This document shows, one piece after another, positions 4,253 to 55,948 of a stretch of DNA of 64,000 bases (the first letter of the stretch is position 1; the number at the start of each line of letters is the position of its first letter). The notes below the pieces were generated by a model that did no database searches, was not told the DNA's origin, and saw only the letters and a list, made by a program, of their open reading frames with translations. This DNA is from Corynebacterium fournieri (GTDB taxonomy: Bacteria > Actinomycetota > Actinomycetes > Mycobacteriales > Mycobacteriaceae): assembly GCF_030408775.1 (NCBI RefSeq), contig NZ_CP047210.1, forward strand, positions 124,001 through 188,000, written 5' to 3'. Position numbers and translations under genes: made by a program.

Positions 4253-4328
4253 GCGCCCGTAGCTCAACGGATAGAGCATCTGACTACGGATCAGAAGGTT
4301 GGGGGTTCGAATCCCTCCGGGCGCACCA
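4253..4328 (+). tRNA. tRNA-Arg(ACG), CCA encoded
   Basis: The acceptor GCGCCCG pairs with CGGGCGC. The anticodon stem TCTGA/TCAGA encloses loop CTACGGA with anticodon ACG at 4286-4288. The T-arm is GGGGGTTCGAATCCC. CCA is genomically encoded (4326-4328). The last 15 nt are part of a 16-bp direct repeat whose second copy lies at 5745-5760, on the far side of an IS481-like element, so the tRNA remains intact after insertion. Confidence 0.97.
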
Positions 4329-4329
4329 A
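4314..4329 (+). repeat. Target-site direct repeat, tRNA-Arg copy
   Basis: CCTCCGGGCGCACCAA: the last 15 nt of tRNA-Arg including CCA plus one base. Identical to 5745-5760; flanking bases differ on both sides. Confidence 0.9.
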
Positions 4330-4336
4330 TGTGAAG

Positions 4337-4380
4337 TCTCGAGACATCGTTCCTACGGTGTCTCGAGATTTTTTGTTTTT
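4337..4380 (+). terminator. Terminator formed inside the tRNA-proximal end of the IS element
   Basis: TCTCGAGACA (4337-4346) and TGTCTCGAGA (4359-4368) form a perfect 10-bp stem followed by TTTTTTG and more T on the plus strand. It would stop transcription leaving tRNA-Arg before it runs antisense into the transposase. One arm is part of the terminal inverted repeat. Confidence 0.75.
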
Positions 4381-5582
4381 GATGTGCCCCGGGGTGGGGT
4401 GATTTCGTTATCTTTTTGGTTGTAGTAGATCTTTTCGTCGGTGAGTGTGTAGGCGGCGATTTGTGCCCCAGTGGTGATGAGTTTGATGTCGACGTGGTTG
4501 TCGACGCAGATCATGGTGATGGCCTCGCCGCCCCATCTGCGGCCGATGTAGAGGCGGCGTAGTTTGCCGCGCCAGCGCAGTGTTGTTTTGCCGTTGGTGC
4601 CGACTTTGTCGGTGCGCAGTCGGAAGTCGTGGCTGTTGTGGGCTGGGTTTGGTGTGGCTTTGGGCAGTGCGTTGTAGGCCTCTGCTGGGGTGATGCGGTC
4701 GAGTGCTCGGTGTGGGCGTTTGTGGTTGTAGTAGTCGATGATGTCGTCGAGTTGGCTGTTGAGTTCATCGATGCTGGTGGCGGGTGGTTTGTGAGCGAGG
4801 GCGATTTTGAGTGTTTGGTGGAAGCGCTCGACTTTGCCTTGGGTTTGTGGGTGGTAGGGTTTGCCGTTTTTCTTGGTGATTCCGATGTCGATGAGGAGTT
4901 GTTCGAAGCCGTTTCGTGAGGGGTTTTTCCGGTCTGATCTGGTTGTGAAGGCTCGTCCGTTGTCGGTGAGGGTGGATTGGGGCCAGCCGTGGGCCTCGGC
5001 TGCGGTGGTGAAGCTTTCGATGACGTTTCCGACGGTGGCGTAGGGGTATGCGCGGCAGGAGATGATGAAGCGGGAGTGGTCGTCGAGGATGGTGAGGATC
5101 ACGACGCGTTTGTGGGCGGCGATGGTCCAGTCGCTGTAGTCCATCTGCCAGGTTTCGTTGGGTTGGTCGGCCTGGAATCGTATCCACGAGCTGCGGGGAC
5201 GCTTTTGTGGTTGGGGTGTGACGTGTCCGTTGTCGGCGAGCACTCGGTGGATGGTTGATGCTGCTGGTGGTGGGTCTATGCCTTCTTGTTGCAGGTGCCA
5301 GCGGATGGTGTTGGCGCCGGCGTCGGTGCCTCGGTTGGTGAGTTCTTCGCGTAGTTCGAGGATGCGGTCGGTAATGGGTTGTTGGATTGCTCTGGGGTTT
5401 GTGTGGGGGCGTTTGGAGCGTGGTTCGAGTGCCTCGTATCCGCCTTCTCGGTGGCGTCGTTGCAGGGTTCGGATCCAGCGGGTAGTCACGCCGAAATGCT
5501 CTGCGGCTTCGACCTGGCTCATGCCGGTGATTTCCATGGTTTCGATGATGATTTTCGGTGCTGGTTTGTCTGCCTTCGTCAT
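4353..5582 (-). CDS. IS481-family DDE transposase
   Basis: 409-aa transposase. An N-terminal helix-turn-helix (about 15-55, SQVEAAEHFGVTTRWIRTLQ) and a second winged/HTH-like region (to about 125) precede an rve-type DDE core. The likely catalytic residues are D in WQMDYSDW, D in LTDNGRAF and E in GKVERFHQ. The tail after about residue 315 looks like a Mu-transposase-type beta-barrel. The frame is intact and full length, so it may be active. The TAG stop touches the left inverted repeat. It is the only gene of the element and its 3' end faces tRNA-Arg. It is related to the second transposase of the window but clearly diverged from it. Confidence 0.9.
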   Translation of the reverse strand: MTKADKPAPKIIIETMEITGMSQVEAAEHFGVTTRWIRTLQRRHREGGYEALEPRSKRPHTNPRAIQQPITDRILELREELTNRGTDAGANTIRWHLQQEGIDPPPAASTIHRVLADNGHVTPQPQKRPRSSWIRFQADQPNETWQMDYSDWTIAAHKRVVILTILDDHSRFIISCRAYPYATVGNVIESFTTAAEAHGWPQSTLTDNGRAFTTRSDRKNPSRNGFEQLLIDIGITKKNGKPYHPQTQGKVERFHQTLKIALAHKPPATSIDELNSQLDDIIDYYNHKRPHRALDRITPAEAYNALPKATPNPAHNSHDFRLRTDKVGTNGKTTLRWRGKLRRLYIGRRWGGEAITMICVDNHVDIKLITTGAQIAAYTLTDEKIYYNQKDNEITPPRGTSKTKNLETP

Positions 5583-5596
5583 CGATTAATCATGGC

Positions 5597-5744
5597 GGAA
5601 CGATGTCTCGAGACACGGTTTTTCTCGTCTCCGGGGCAATCCCGGCAGCAGATGTGCCCACCGGAACGATGTGGTGAGACATCTCCGCAGGCTGAACCGG
5701 AACGATCTCATGAGACATGCGGAACGATGTCACCGAACCAGACA
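5597..5744 (-). repeat. Array of four ~20-bp transposase-end motifs
   Basis: GGAACGATGTCTCGAGACA (5597-5615) is followed by variant copies at 5663-5682, 5699-5718 and 5721-5740. All have the same orientation, with spacings of 66, 36 and 22 bp. The last copy is part of the terminal inverted repeat. An inverted copy lies at the other end (4336-4353). Probably transposase binding sites, possibly also an operator for the transposase gene that starts at 5582. Confidence 0.75.
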
Positions 5745-5760
5745 CCTCCGGGCGCACCAA
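5745..5760 (+). repeat. Target-site direct repeat, distal copy (orphan tRNA-Arg 3' end)
   Basis: CCTCCGGGCGCACCAA, identical to 4314-4329. It is an orphan tRNA end left beyond the element and is followed directly by the old tRNA terminator. Confidence 0.9.
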
Positions 5761-5766
5761 CTGTTG

Positions 5767-5796
5767 AAACGCCCCAAGCACCGCTTGGGGCGTTTT
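5767..5796 (+). terminator. Original tRNA-Arg terminator, displaced by the element
   Basis: AACGCCCCAAGC and GCTTGGGGCGTT flank a short loop and are followed by TTTT. It lies 7 nt after the orphan tRNA end, where it would have ended the tRNA transcript before insertion. The rest of the gap to 6020 is A+T-rich and presumably holds the promoter of the next gene; I see no gene in it. Confidence 0.75.
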
Positions 5797-15918: not shown

Positions 15919-16006
15919 GGTAGCGTGTCCGAGCGGCCGAAGGTACTCGCCTCGAAAGCGAGTGTGGGTAAAACCACCGCGGGTTCAAATCCCGCCGCTA
16001 CCGCCA
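15919..16006 (+). tRNA. tRNA-Ser(CGA), CCA encoded
   Basis: The acceptor GGTAGCG pairs with CGCTACC. The anticodon stem CTCGC/GCGAG encloses the CGA anticodon. It has the long variable arm of class II tRNAs and ends GCCA. No insertion is present at its 3' end, unlike the other tRNA-Ser of the window. Confidence 0.95.
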
Positions 16007-24583: not shown

Positions 24584-24603
24584 GGCCCGCAAGTATAAAC
24601 GCT

Positions 24604-24634
24604 AAAAGCCGACACCCGAGGGGTGCCGGCTTTT
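24604..24634. terminator. Original tRNA-Ser(GGA) terminator, displaced by the element
   Basis: AAAAGCCGACACCC and GGGTGCCGGCTTTT pair around a short loop. On the minus strand it follows the orphan tRNA-Ser end at 24638-24653, so it was the tRNA terminator before insertion. Confidence 0.75.
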
Positions 24635-24637
24635 ATA

Positions 24638-24653
24638 TTGGCGGAGGATGTGG
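24638..24653 (-). repeat. Target-site direct repeat, distal copy (orphan tRNA-Ser 3' end)
   Basis: On the minus strand CCACATCCTCCGCCAA, identical to 26086-26101. It covers the last 15 nt of tRNA-Ser including CCA, plus one base. Confidence 0.9.
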
Positions 24654-24660
24654 TGTCTGA

Positions 24661-24798
24661 AGTCACGACATATTTGACGGGGTGTGCCTGCGGAAGGCGT
24701 TGTGATCCTTGACAGGTCAGTCGCGTCATAGTTGACACTTAGGGTTACCTCAGTCGTGTCGGTGACGTTTGACTGGTGAGTCGGGACATGTTTGACAC
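24661..24798 (+). repeat. Array of four transposase-end motifs upstream of the transposase
   Basis: Copies: AGTCACGACATATTTGAC at 24661, AGTCGCGTCATAGTTGAC at 24719, a 2-nt-longer copy at 24752-24773 and AGTCGGGACATGTTTGAC at 24779. Two inverted copies lie at 26038-26055 and 26061-26078. The last upstream copy abuts the transposase start, so binding could also repress it. Confidence 0.75.
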
Positions 24799-24799
24799 T

Positions 24800-25993
24800 A
24801 TGAACAGTCCTAACCGCAACATCGCCATCGTCAGAGCCGTCAGAGGCCAAGGCGGCACACCCACCAACGTCGCCAAACGATTCGGCATCTCGCGCCAACG
24901 CGTCCACCAAATCCTCAACGCCTACGACGCCGGCGGCGCCGAGGCAATCGCACCGAAATCACGCGCCCCGCACACCCACCCGCACGCCGTCCCGGAAGCA
25001 CTACGCAACGACATCATCAGCATCCGCAAACAACTCACCCGACACGGACTCGACGCCGGGCCCGAAACCATTGCCTACCACCTCGAACAGGCCGGCAAAC
25101 GCGCCCCCTCAACCTCAACGATCCGCCGCATCCTCACCAACGAGGGCTTGATCACCCCGCAGCCGCAAAAGAAGCCGAAAAGCTCCTACATCCGCTTCGA
25201 AGCCGCGATGCCCAACGAATGCTGGCAAGCCGACATCACCCACCTCTTCCTCGCTGATAACACGCGGGTAGAAGTCCTCGACTTCCTCGACGACCACTCG
25301 CGATACCTGTTGTCAATCACCGCGGCCGCCGCATTTACAGGCCCCGCCGTCGCCGCCGAACTCACCCGCCTGATCGGCGCATACGGCCCGCCAGCATCCA
25401 CGCTGACGGACAACGGACTGGTGTTCACCGCCCGCCTAGCCGGGCGCAAAGGCGGGCGAAACGCATTCGAAAAAGTGCTCGTCGCACACAAAATCCAACA
25501 GAAAAACGGCCGGCCAGGCCACCCCCAAACCCAAGGAAAAATTGAGCGATTCCACCAAACCATCAAAAAATGGATCACCGCCCGACCCCCAGCACAAACC
25601 ATCGATGAGCTGCAACAACTCCTCAACGAGTTTCGCCAATACTACAACTGCACCCGACCCCACCGCGCCCTAGGCAGACGCACCCCGCAGCAGGCATACA
25701 CCACCGGAGTCAAAGCCACACCCAACGACAACCCCAAAGAAGAATGGCGCACCCGAAACGACACAGTCGACAAAAACGGCAAAGTCTCCGTGCGCTACGC
25801 CGGCAAACTCTTCCACCTCGGCATCGGACGCGCCTACAAACACAAGAAAATCCTCATGGTCATCACCGACAACCACATCATCACATCACTGGTCGAAACC
25901 GGAGAAGTCATCACAGAGCACTACATCGACACCGCCTGCGACTACCAAAAGGCCTACTGGAAACACGGCGACCCACCACTGCACCCCAAATGA
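24800..25993 (+). CDS. IS481-family DDE transposase
   Basis: 397-aa transposase with the same architecture as the one at 4353-5582: an N-terminal HTH (PTNVAKRFGISRQRVHQIL), a second DNA-binding region and an rve core. The likely DDE residues are D in CWQADITHLF, D in LTDNGLVF and E in GKIERFHQ; a C-terminal beta-barrel follows. ATG 24800 fits best; GTG 24776 and ATG 24788 are in frame but lie within the motif array. Full length without frameshift. It points toward tRNA-Ser. Identity to the other transposase is partial, clearest in the core (LDDHSR, HPQTQGK, RPHRAL). Confidence 0.9.
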   Translation: MNSPNRNIAIVRAVRGQGGTPTNVAKRFGISRQRVHQILNAYDAGGAEAIAPKSRAPHTHPHAVPEALRNDIISIRKQLTRHGLDAGPETIAYHLEQAGKRAPSTSTIRRILTNEGLITPQPQKKPKSSYIRFEAAMPNECWQADITHLFLADNTRVEVLDFLDDHSRYLLSITAAAAFTGPAVAAELTRLIGAYGPPASTLTDNGLVFTARLAGRKGGRNAFEKVLVAHKIQQKNGRPGHPQTQGKIERFHQTIKKWITARPPAQTIDELQQLLNEFRQYYNCTRPHRALGRRTPQQAYTTGVKATPNDNPKEEWRTRNDTVDKNGKVSVRYAGKLFHLGIGRAYKHKKILMVITDNHIITSLVETGEVITEHYIDTACDYQKAYWKHGDPPLHPK

Positions 25994-25995
25994 AC

Positions 25996-26035
25996 AAAAC
26001 CGGCACCCCAGAACAAAAACAACTGGGATGCCGGT
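25996..26035 (-). terminator. Terminator at the tRNA-proximal end of the second element
   Basis: A 13-bp stem (25999-26011 with 26023-26035, one mismatch) is followed on the minus strand by TTTTG. It would stop tRNA-Ser transcription from running antisense into the transposase, matching the hairpin at 4337-4380. Confidence 0.65.
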
Positions 26036-26085
26036 CCGTCCAGCATGTCGCGACTCATGCGTCAAGCATGACGCGACTCATGACA

Positions 26086-26101
26086 TTGGCGGAGGATGTG
26101 G
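26086..26101 (-). repeat. Target-site direct repeat, tRNA-Ser copy
   Basis: Identical to 24638-24653; forms the 3' end of the intact tRNA-Ser gene. Confidence 0.9.
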
Positions 26102-26175
26102 GATTTGAACCCACGAGGGTCGTGAAACCCGCACGCGTTCCAGGCGTGTGACATAGGCCGCTAGTCGAATCCTCC
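26087..26175 (-). tRNA. tRNA-Ser(GGA), CCA encoded
   Basis: The acceptor GGAGGAT pairs with ATCCTCC. The anticodon stem CACGC/GCGTG encloses the GGA anticodon. Class II variable arm; ends GCCA. The 3' end is rebuilt by the target-site repeat of the adjacent element. Confidence 0.96.
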
Positions 26176-26287: not shown

Positions 26288-26380
26288 GCAGGATCCCACG
26301 CGGTGTTATCTTGTGAACTCCCCCAGGGCGGGAACGCAGCAAGGGTCAGCGAGCTCTGGCAGGTGCGTGGGGTCCCTTTT
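26288..26380 (+). ncRNA. ffs: 4.5S signal recognition particle RNA
   Basis: Contains the conserved apical domain of bacterial SRP RNA (GTGAACTCCCCCAGGGCGGG, AACGCAGCAAGGGTCAGC). A basal stem pairs GGATCCCACGC (26291-26301) with GCGTGGGGTCC (26365-26375), followed by CTTTT. The ends are approximate. Confidence 0.9.
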
Positions 26381-26420
26381 CTATGTCGGGGTCCCCGGCC
26401 GGGCTTGTACGATGTAACCC

Positions 26421-55871: not shown

Positions 55872-55948
<77 letters not shown>

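What the first reader, a model, noticed from the sequence alone, without database searches (positions are those of the whole stretch)
24638..26175. Second, divergent element with the same tRNA register and orientation at tRNA-Ser(GGA)
The second element differs in transposase, end motifs and target tRNA, yet its duplication is again 16 bp, again the last 15 nt of the tRNA plus one base (both duplications read CC...CCAA in tRNA sense), and the transposase again points toward the tRNA. Two independent insertions agreeing in length, register and direction are hard to explain by chance. This suggests a tRNA-targeting clade of IS481-like elements, possibly guided by the T-arm/acceptor sequence or by transcription-related proteins.
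Basis: partly seen in the sequence, partly recalled or inferred. Interest (0 to 1): 0.9.

Follow-up and report, generated by a model that had tools for sequence, protein, structure and literature searches.

The report
Insertion sequences that hunt tRNA ends
A widespread group of small one-gene bacterial transposons inserts at one exact spot at the end of tRNA genes, facing the same way and leaving the tRNA intact, often bringing a transcription stop signal that could replace the one it pushed away.

Summary
Element 2 (24654-26085, 1432 bp, one gene) lies behind tRNA-Ser(GGA) with a 16-bp duplication covering tRNA nt 62-76 plus one base; its transposase gene faces the tRNA. Four of five identical copies in the genome do this at four tRNAs; with element 1 and three short copies bearing its ends, 8 of 9 insertions are at tRNA ends. 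Of 173 sampled insertions of this transposase clade ("group I"), 97 were located by duplication and inverted repeats alone: 93 are at tRNA 3' ends, tRNA 3' fragments, or stacked behind another copy. The duplication starts at nt 62 in 89 of 89; 76 have a called tRNA, convergent, and none has one placed otherwise. At 29 sites of other IS481 relatives with similar duplications there is no such target. A second IS481 clade ("group II", 14 of 14 sampled) also sits behind tRNAs, in opposite orientation, 6 bp further on. In 28 of 59 distinct group I ends a strong terminator-like hairpin faces the tRNA (1 of 59 faces the other way; 0 of 177 shuffled). Most likely the transposase reads the T-arm as DNA and its unlike ends fix orientation; both steps are inferred.

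The parts
24654..26085 (+). Element 2, complete 1432-bp IS481-like insertion sequence (group I)
   Evidence: five copies identical over all 1432 bp in the genome; imperfect inverted repeats TGTC...GACA
24776..25993 (+). Transposase of element 2, 405 aa (HTH domains, rve/DDE core, C-terminal region)
   Evidence: NF033577 transpos_IS481 259 bits, cut-off 224
24638..24653 (.). Distal copy of the 16-bp target duplication
26086..26101 (.). tRNA-side copy of the 16-bp target duplication = tRNA nt 62-76 plus 1
26087..26175 (-). tRNA-Ser(GGA), intact target gene
   Evidence: ARAGORN; RF00005 at the same place
25993..26035 (-). Terminator-like hairpin plus T-run inside element 2, facing the tRNA
   Evidence: letters; detected at -24.9 kcal/mol (row L001)
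24603..24634 (-). Presumed native terminator of tRNA-Ser(GGA), now displaced to the far side of element 2
   Evidence: letters; five relatives without an element at this tRNA show a hairpin directly behind it (read by eye)
4330..5744 (-). Element 1, 1415-bp IS481-like insertion sequence (group I)
4353..5582 (-). Transposase of element 1, 409 aa
4253..4328 (+). tRNA-Arg(ACG), intact target gene of element 1
4314..4329 (.). tRNA-side copy of element 1 target duplication
5745..5760 (.). Distal copy of element 1 target duplication
4337..4380 (+). Terminator-like hairpin plus T-run inside element 1, about 8 bp behind the tRNA and facing it
   Evidence: letters; -27.0 kcal/mol (row L006)
5770..5796 (+). 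Presumed native terminator of tRNA-Arg(ACG), displaced by element 1
   Evidence: letters; read by eye

Best explanation
Both window elements belong to one clade of IS481-family insertion sequences whose single transposase inserts at one fixed position of tRNA genes. Shown by sequence: the duplication starts between nt 61 and 62 of the T-stem and runs 15-17 bp, to or past the tRNA 3' end, so it rebuilds the whole tRNA; the transposase gene is convergent with the tRNA; the site can be hit again (stacked copies); elements without a transposase gene do the same; many ends carry an intrinsic terminator-like hairpin facing the tRNA. Inferred: the transposase binds the T-arm (around GGTTCRA, nt 52-58) as double-stranded DNA; the different outer ~12 bp of the two ends (left consensus TGTctgg.tTCA, right TGTgATGt.TCg, 51 distinct elements) set the orientation, as argued for promoter-targeting elements in PMC3942029; the built-in hairpin replaces the displaced tRNA terminator and shields the transposase gene from antisense transcription, making the landing nearly harmless.
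For: Own genome: 4 of 5 identical element 2 copies at Arg-ACG, Ser-GGA, Arg-TCT, His-GTG; element 1 and three element-1-type short copies at tRNAs. Four 520-524-bp short copies in one relative (G179), all four at tRNAs. Unbiased set (ends found without looking at tRNAs): 76 intact tRNA, 13 tRNA 3' fragment, 3 stacked, 1 tRNA with unread bases, 4 elsewhere, of 97. Duplication starts at nt 62 in 89 of 89; 76 called tRNAs convergent, 0 of 97 with a called tRNA placed otherwise next to either end; 14 isotypes and 29 anticodons among 119 intact targets. One clade, 99% SH-aLRT. Controls: 29 sites of non-clade IS481 relatives have T-arm scores 0-4 of 8, against 7-8 of 8 at 89 of 89 group I tRNA sites (L278 left out of the controls). 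DNA recognition: 3' fragments occupied; 3 of 4 off-targets score 6 of 8, background 0.8%. Terminator-like hairpin at -20 kcal/mol or lower: 28 of 59 tRNA-facing, 1 of 59 gene-facing, 0 of 177 shuffled, 1 of 14 controls. Contiguous empty sites for two copies.
Against: Four of 97 duplication-resolved insertions are elsewhere, one of them (L161, Bifidobacterium biavatii, long branch) without T-arm likeness (3 of 8). 28 of 173 group I loci could not be read (contig ends, decayed or disturbed copies). In the own genome 27 of 67 perfect GGTTCRANYCC copies lie outside tRNAs and none is occupied by the nine insertions, so the 11-mer alone is not the whole signal. tRNA 3' fragments could have arisen after the insertion, when an integrative element split the tRNA. 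About half of group I ends (27 of 59 at -15 kcal/mol) show no such hairpin by my criteria. Host partners were not looked for.
Confidence: 0.78

Rival explanations
1. The transposase is recruited by a host factor that sits on tRNA genes or nascent tRNA (RNA polymerase at the tRNA terminator, tRNA-processing or T-loop-modifying enzymes) rather than by reading T-arm DNA itself.
For: The perfect T-arm 11-mer outside tRNAs (27 copies) is not occupied in the own genome; the arrangement is fixed relative to transcription.
Against: tRNA 3' fragments lacking the 5' half are occupied (13 of 97); three off-target sites are T-arm-like in sequence without any tRNA; a single-base register suggests direct DNA contact; groups I and II use opposite orientations.
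Confidence: 0.12
2. The target is recognised as a hairpin or cruciform extruded by the palindromic T-arm rather than as a sequence.
For: T-stem fully paired (G-T allowed) at 88 of 89 on-target sites; 16 of 20 sampled unoccupied 11-mers lack a full T-stem; off-target L003 forms an 8-bp hairpin.
Against: Three off-targets keep GGTTC or GGATC but the four off-targets have only 2-3 of 5 T-stem pairs; L030 folds weakly. T-stems pair in tRNAs anyway, so the on-target figure does not discriminate.
Confidence: 0.08
3. Insertion is broad and selection leaves only harmless insertions behind tRNAs.
For: tRNA ends rebuilt by the duplication are plausibly neutral sites.
Against: Exact register in 89 of 89 and no called tRNA in any other placement; other IS481 relatives in the same genus sit at many other sites (L077-L095).
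Confidence: 0.02
4. An element-encoded guide RNA pairs with the T-arm.
For: Guided transposition to tRNA genes exists in CAST elements (passages of PMC11406308).
Against: Short copies keep only about 150 and 75 bp (element 1 type) or about 374 and 166-170 bp (element 2 type) of the ends; GGTTC occurs near the tip of 13 of 51 left ends and 0 of 51 right ends; no second ORF of 150 aa or more in element 2.
Confidence: 0.03

Closest known systems
IS481 family (NF033577; e.g. ISLxc2 with NCTAGN target, PMC2516522 passages)
   Same: Transposase model, TGT...ACA type ends, one transposase gene
   Different: CTAG-type or other targets; no tRNA target in the 29 non-clade sites read here
IS1202 family 'dif hunters' (ISAjo2, ISAba71; PMC10132070 passages)
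   Same: One DDE transposase, fixed distance and orientation relative to a conserved site
   Different: Target is dif/pdif, 5-bp duplication, 441-457 aa transposase modelled on TnsB
Promoter-targeting Mutator-like elements (TnGBS, ISLre2, ISKra4; PMC3942029 passages)
   Same: Oriented insertion at fixed distance from a functional site; asymmetric ends proposed to set orientation
   Different: Other transposase superfamily, target upstream of sigma-A promoters
Tn7-like and CAST elements with tRNA attachment sites (PMC11406308 passages)
   Same: DDE transposase, TGT ends, tRNA genes as attachment site
   Different: Use TniQ/TnsD or crRNA partners; here the element carries only a transposase
Ty1/Ty3 and Dictyostelium TRE retrotransposons (recalled, no call)
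   Same: tRNA genes as safe havens
   Different: Eukaryotic, guided by Pol III factors, insert outside the gene

Membership tests
IS481 family | Transposase passes the NCBIfam IS481 model | tested here: met
   259 bits for each window transposase, cut-off 224
IS481 family | Transposase gene between inverted repeats starting TGT | tested here: met
   TGT ends of IS481 named in PMC11406308
IS481 family | Target duplication of about 4-15 bp (recalled from ISfinder, no call) | tested here: inconclusive
   15-17 bp in group I, 14-16 bp in the other sampled relatives
IS481 family | CTAG-type target seen in some described members (not a family-wide criterion) | tested here: not met
   Group I duplications begin at tRNA nt 62
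IS1202 family | Insertion 5 bp from a dif/pdif XerC site with 5-bp duplication | tested here: not met
   Targets are tRNA ends with 15-17 bp duplications
Tn7-like / CAST | TnsC and TniQ or guide RNA partners carried by the element | tested here: not met
   One 405-aa ORF in the 1432-bp element, no other of 150 aa or more; partners elsewhere in the host were not searched
IS110/IS1111 with seekRNA | DEDD transposase with non-coding guide region | tested here: not met
   rve/DDE and HTH domains instead

The most novel reading that the evidence does not exclude
Strict tRNA 3'-end targeting by insertion sequences that carry nothing but one DDE transposase arose twice within the IS481 family: group I (cut 61|62, gene convergent with the tRNA) and group II (cut 67|68, gene co-directional). 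Group I elements additionally evolved a terminator at the tRNA-facing end that substitutes for the displaced tRNA terminator, and the motif they read is the T-arm as DNA.
Probability: 0.6. Interest if true: 0.85.

Novelty: new variant of a known kind. Interest (0 to 1): 0.75.

Why it matters
tRNA 3' ends are classic integration sites of phages and islands (tyrosine integrases, recalled) and of Tn7-like systems with dedicated targeting proteins or guides. Here a one-gene insertion sequence appears to do the same, at tRNAs of at least 14 isotypes, with base-pair register, fixed orientation and often a self-supplied terminator. If confirmed it gives a compact model for how a DDE transposase gains site specificity (non-targeting sister clades for both groups are at hand for chimeras), and a possible small tool for oriented insertion at natural safe sites. 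It also warns annotators that sequence behind tRNAs in Actinomycetota may be element-derived.

Tried and rejected
Duplication length as the tRNA signal: rejected, since sister IS481 clades have 14-16 bp duplications at other sites. CCA or 'CCAA' as the anchor: rejected, CCA in 34 of 76. Mimicry of the T-arm by element ends: GGTTC near the tip of 13 of 51 left ends and none of 51 right ends, in the opposite sense to the target; not pursued. Plasmids: with element 2 as query 4131 records matched and 40 were listed; the best is one Arthrobacter megaplasmid copy at 48.7%, itself on a tRNA 3' fragment (L192), the other 39 listed are at most 35.5%; with element 1 three records were tallied at 60-80% identity that are not among the 30 listed and were not inspected. 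Viral contigs: 16 loci, 24-29% over 148 or more residues and three short pieces at 41-45%. A clean empty site for element 2 was not found, because the sequence behind the tRNA diverges between species. Contiguous matches across the rejoined site were found for the off-target copy L003 (G179 79%, G002 78% identity) and for the tRNA-His copy (G022 91%, and a second G016 match that covers only the 3' part of the tRNA). A residue comparison with the sister clades gave 20 group I-specific positions (13 of 20 in the DDE domain) and 20 group II-specific ones; no cause was assigned.

Literature: ten searches. Their listings (titles and abstract starts; two searches listed 20 and 15 of 24) showed no paper describing IS481 elements targeting tRNA genes. 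Passages only were read in PMC10132070, PMC2516522, PMC9569102, PMC12500396, PMC11406308, PMC3942029, PMC6582537, PMC3751702 and PMC6305408. ISfinder and most subscription journals could not be searched.

Full report
OBSERVATION. Element 2 occupies 24654-26085 with a 16-bp duplication (24638-24653, 26086-26101) that is nt 62-76 of tRNA-Ser(GGA) plus one base; the transposase gene runs toward the tRNA. Element 1 (4330-5744) has the same arrangement at tRNA-Arg(ACG). Both transposases pass the IS481 model and are 41-43% identical.

OWN GENOME. G000 (2.39 Mb, one contig) holds five element 2 copies identical over 1432 bp. Four lie at tRNA 3' ends in the same register: Arg-ACG, Ser-GGA, Arg-TCT and His-GTG. 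One (L003) lies in a place without a tRNA. The element 1 right-end sequence occurs at four places: element 1 itself, and three short elements keeping about 150 and 75 bp of the ends, at tRNA-Arg(CCG), tRNA-Leu(CAG) and tRNA-Arg(TCT), the last stacked outside an element 2 copy. They are 434, 433 and 434 bp; a paired 15-bp duplication is seen in the first and third, not in the Leu one. So 8 of 9 insertions are at tRNA ends, among 53 tRNA genes. A relative (G179) has four short copies of element 2 type, 520-524 bp, all four at tRNAs. The internal part of the element is therefore not needed in cis for targeting.

SAMPLE. Transposase relatives came from a scan of 181 genomes of the genus (112 had a match at any distance, at most 10 candidates scored per genome), the best 80 of 563 relatives in named GTDB records, a class scan of 394 genomes (204 had a match at any distance, mostly 4 candidates scored per genome), places picked by hand from those tables, viral contigs and plasmids. 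Scripts found 272 plus 30 transposase stretches, 256 after merging identical places. 174 were assigned to group I by identity (42% or more to a group I query, or 40% with over 240 bits; L233 and L234 and their repeat exempted by hand). One (L195) repeats L004, leaving 173: 119 at intact tRNA 3' ends (76 with duplication, 42 without, 1 on a second look), 18 at tRNA 3' fragments (judged by eye; one, L128, is cut by the contig end, so intact or fragment is open; Rfam calls a weak tRNA of 32.5 bits at L218), 3 stacked behind another copy, 1 at a tRNA with unread bases (L137), 4 elsewhere (L003, L030, L032, L161), and 28 unreadable (16 unresolved, 11 contig ends, 1 false second look). One unreadable, a second copy in L058, looked stacked. 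The cases without duplication were found by looking for a T-arm, so they are not an unbiased count; two of them (L120, L124) are probably one place. Copies of one element in one genome are counted separately.

UNBIASED TEST. In 97 of the 173 the ends were found only from inverted repeats and a duplication: 76 intact tRNA, 13 fragment, 3 stacked, 1 with unread bases, 4 elsewhere. Duplications are 15 bp in 49, 16 in 38, 17 in 5, and 15-16 with 1-2 mismatches in 5. In all 89 intact or fragment cases the duplication begins at nt 62. 76 of 97 have a called tRNA at the right end, convergent with the gene; 0 of 97 have a called tRNA in another placement next to either end. The 119 intact targets cover 14 isotypes and 29 anticodons (Arg 39, Ser 16, Ala 15, Pro 12, Leu 11 and others). 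The far edge varies and CCA is encoded in only 34 of 76, so the T-arm side is the anchor.

CONTROLS AND TREE. Relatives outside the clade, some in the same genus, also make 14-16 bp duplications but at other sites. At 29 of 29 such sites (several copies per element; L278 left out) the T-arm score at the same register is 0-4 of 8, against 7-8 at 89 of 89 group I tRNA sites. In a 123-row tree (IQ-TREE, quick mode, representatives of the sampled stretches, 11 of 134 incomplete ones left out, some labels set by hand) 78 tRNA-associated rows, 4 unresolved and 1 exception (L161, a long branch) form one clade with 99% SH-aLRT; leaving unresolved rows uncounted, the target label needs 3 changes. Group I includes Corynebacterium, Dermabacter, Brachybacterium, Sinomonas, Demequina, Mycobacterium, Nonomuraea and Acidimicrobiia records, and assemblies labelled Chloroflexi, Acidobacteria, Armatimonadota and Dormiibacterota, where mis-binning is possible.

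A SECOND CLADE. Boundary sampling uncovered group II: about 400-aa transposases, roughly 30% identical to the window ones. All 14 distinct loci sampled lie behind a tRNA, but with the gene co-directional and the left end next to the tRNA. The left end starts at nt 83-84 in 14 of 14 (in the six without a computed duplication it was taken as the first TGT), and the duplication starts at nt 68 in 7 of 8 cases (67 in one). Merging to 14 was done by hand. Group II is one clade (98% SH-aLRT); of the neighbouring ~600-aa transposases five loci could be read and none is at a tRNA. The tree places the two groups apart, with non-tRNA clades next to each, so tRNA targeting most likely arose twice; the root is not known and losses cannot be excluded. 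Group II shows no clear terminator at its tRNA side (1 of 6).

TARGET READING. Sites called only by T-arm motif read as tRNA 3' halves, as left by integrative elements, including one on a megaplasmid (L192). Three of four off-target sites keep 6 of 8 T-arm letters at the exact register (background 0.8% in the window); L161 keeps 3. In the own genome, 40 of 67 copies of GGTTCRANYCC are in tRNAs and 27 are not; none of the 27 is occupied by the nine insertions. Twenty of the 27 were fetched; 16 of the 20 lack a full T-stem. Off-targets have only 2-3 of 5 T-stem pairs, so pairing is not strictly needed. Reading of T-arm DNA, with some further feature still unknown, is the simplest account; it is inferred.

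TERMINATORS. Insertion displaces the tRNA's own terminator. Of eight tRNA-Ser(GGA) stretches read, two carry the element (own L309, and L310), one a worn element 1-type end (L315), and five (L311-L314, L316) a hairpin directly behind the tRNA (by eye). Among 59 distinct group I right ends, a hairpin of -15 kcal/mol or lower with a T-run facing the tRNA is present in 32, facing the other way in 2, in shuffles 3 of 177, in control ends 1 of 14; at -20 the numbers are 28, 1, 0 of 177 and 1 of 14 (first pass with 60 ends). At -9 they are 35, 2, 37 of 177 and 1 of 14, so weak calls are not counted. A terminator facing away from the element's own gene, on the tRNA side, is best read as a substitute for the lost one and a shield against antisense transcription; this function is untested.

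EMPTY SITES. The rejoined site of off-target copy L003 matches G179 and G002 without interruption at 78-79% identity. The rejoined tRNA-His site matches G022 across the junction at 91%, as does a second, shorter G016 match. For element 2 itself none was found.

COMPARISON. By family markers these are IS481 members. In behaviour they resemble IS1202 dif hunters, promoter-targeting Mutator-like elements and tRNA-targeting Tn7-like elements, but the element carries one protein only, has a different target and makes long duplications. No paper in the listings of the ten searches describes this; ISfinder could not be checked.

Noticed in passing
L077-L081 (G149): Five copies of a 457-aa IS481-type transposase with 14-bp duplications; three share a motif with CGTTTTTGG.C and ATTCGTCCGGAAT, and two show a similar motif reversed; possibly another site-specific lineage.
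   Followed up: no
L315 (G004, behind tRNA-Ser(GGA)): A worn element 1-type end seems to form the hairpin behind the tRNA, suggesting element ends can be left behind as host terminators.
   Followed up: partly
L020/L052 (G143) and L042, L043 (G009): Group I copies whose right end is replaced by a similar sequence (CCGGAAAGTATATGCTCC...); cause unknown.
   Followed up: no
L233, L234 (G415, G368): Close non-tRNA relatives (40-41% identity, 386-404 aa) whose duplications share GTCGCTGA; a natural contrast for mapping target specificity.
   Followed up: partly
window 15919-16006 and 55872-55948: The two other tRNA genes of the window (Ser-CGA, Pro-CGG) have no matching transposase behind them and no element 1-type end.
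   Followed up: partly
window about 26300-26390: Sequence resembling a signal recognition particle RNA gene lies next to tRNA-Ser(GGA); read by eye only.
   Followed up: no
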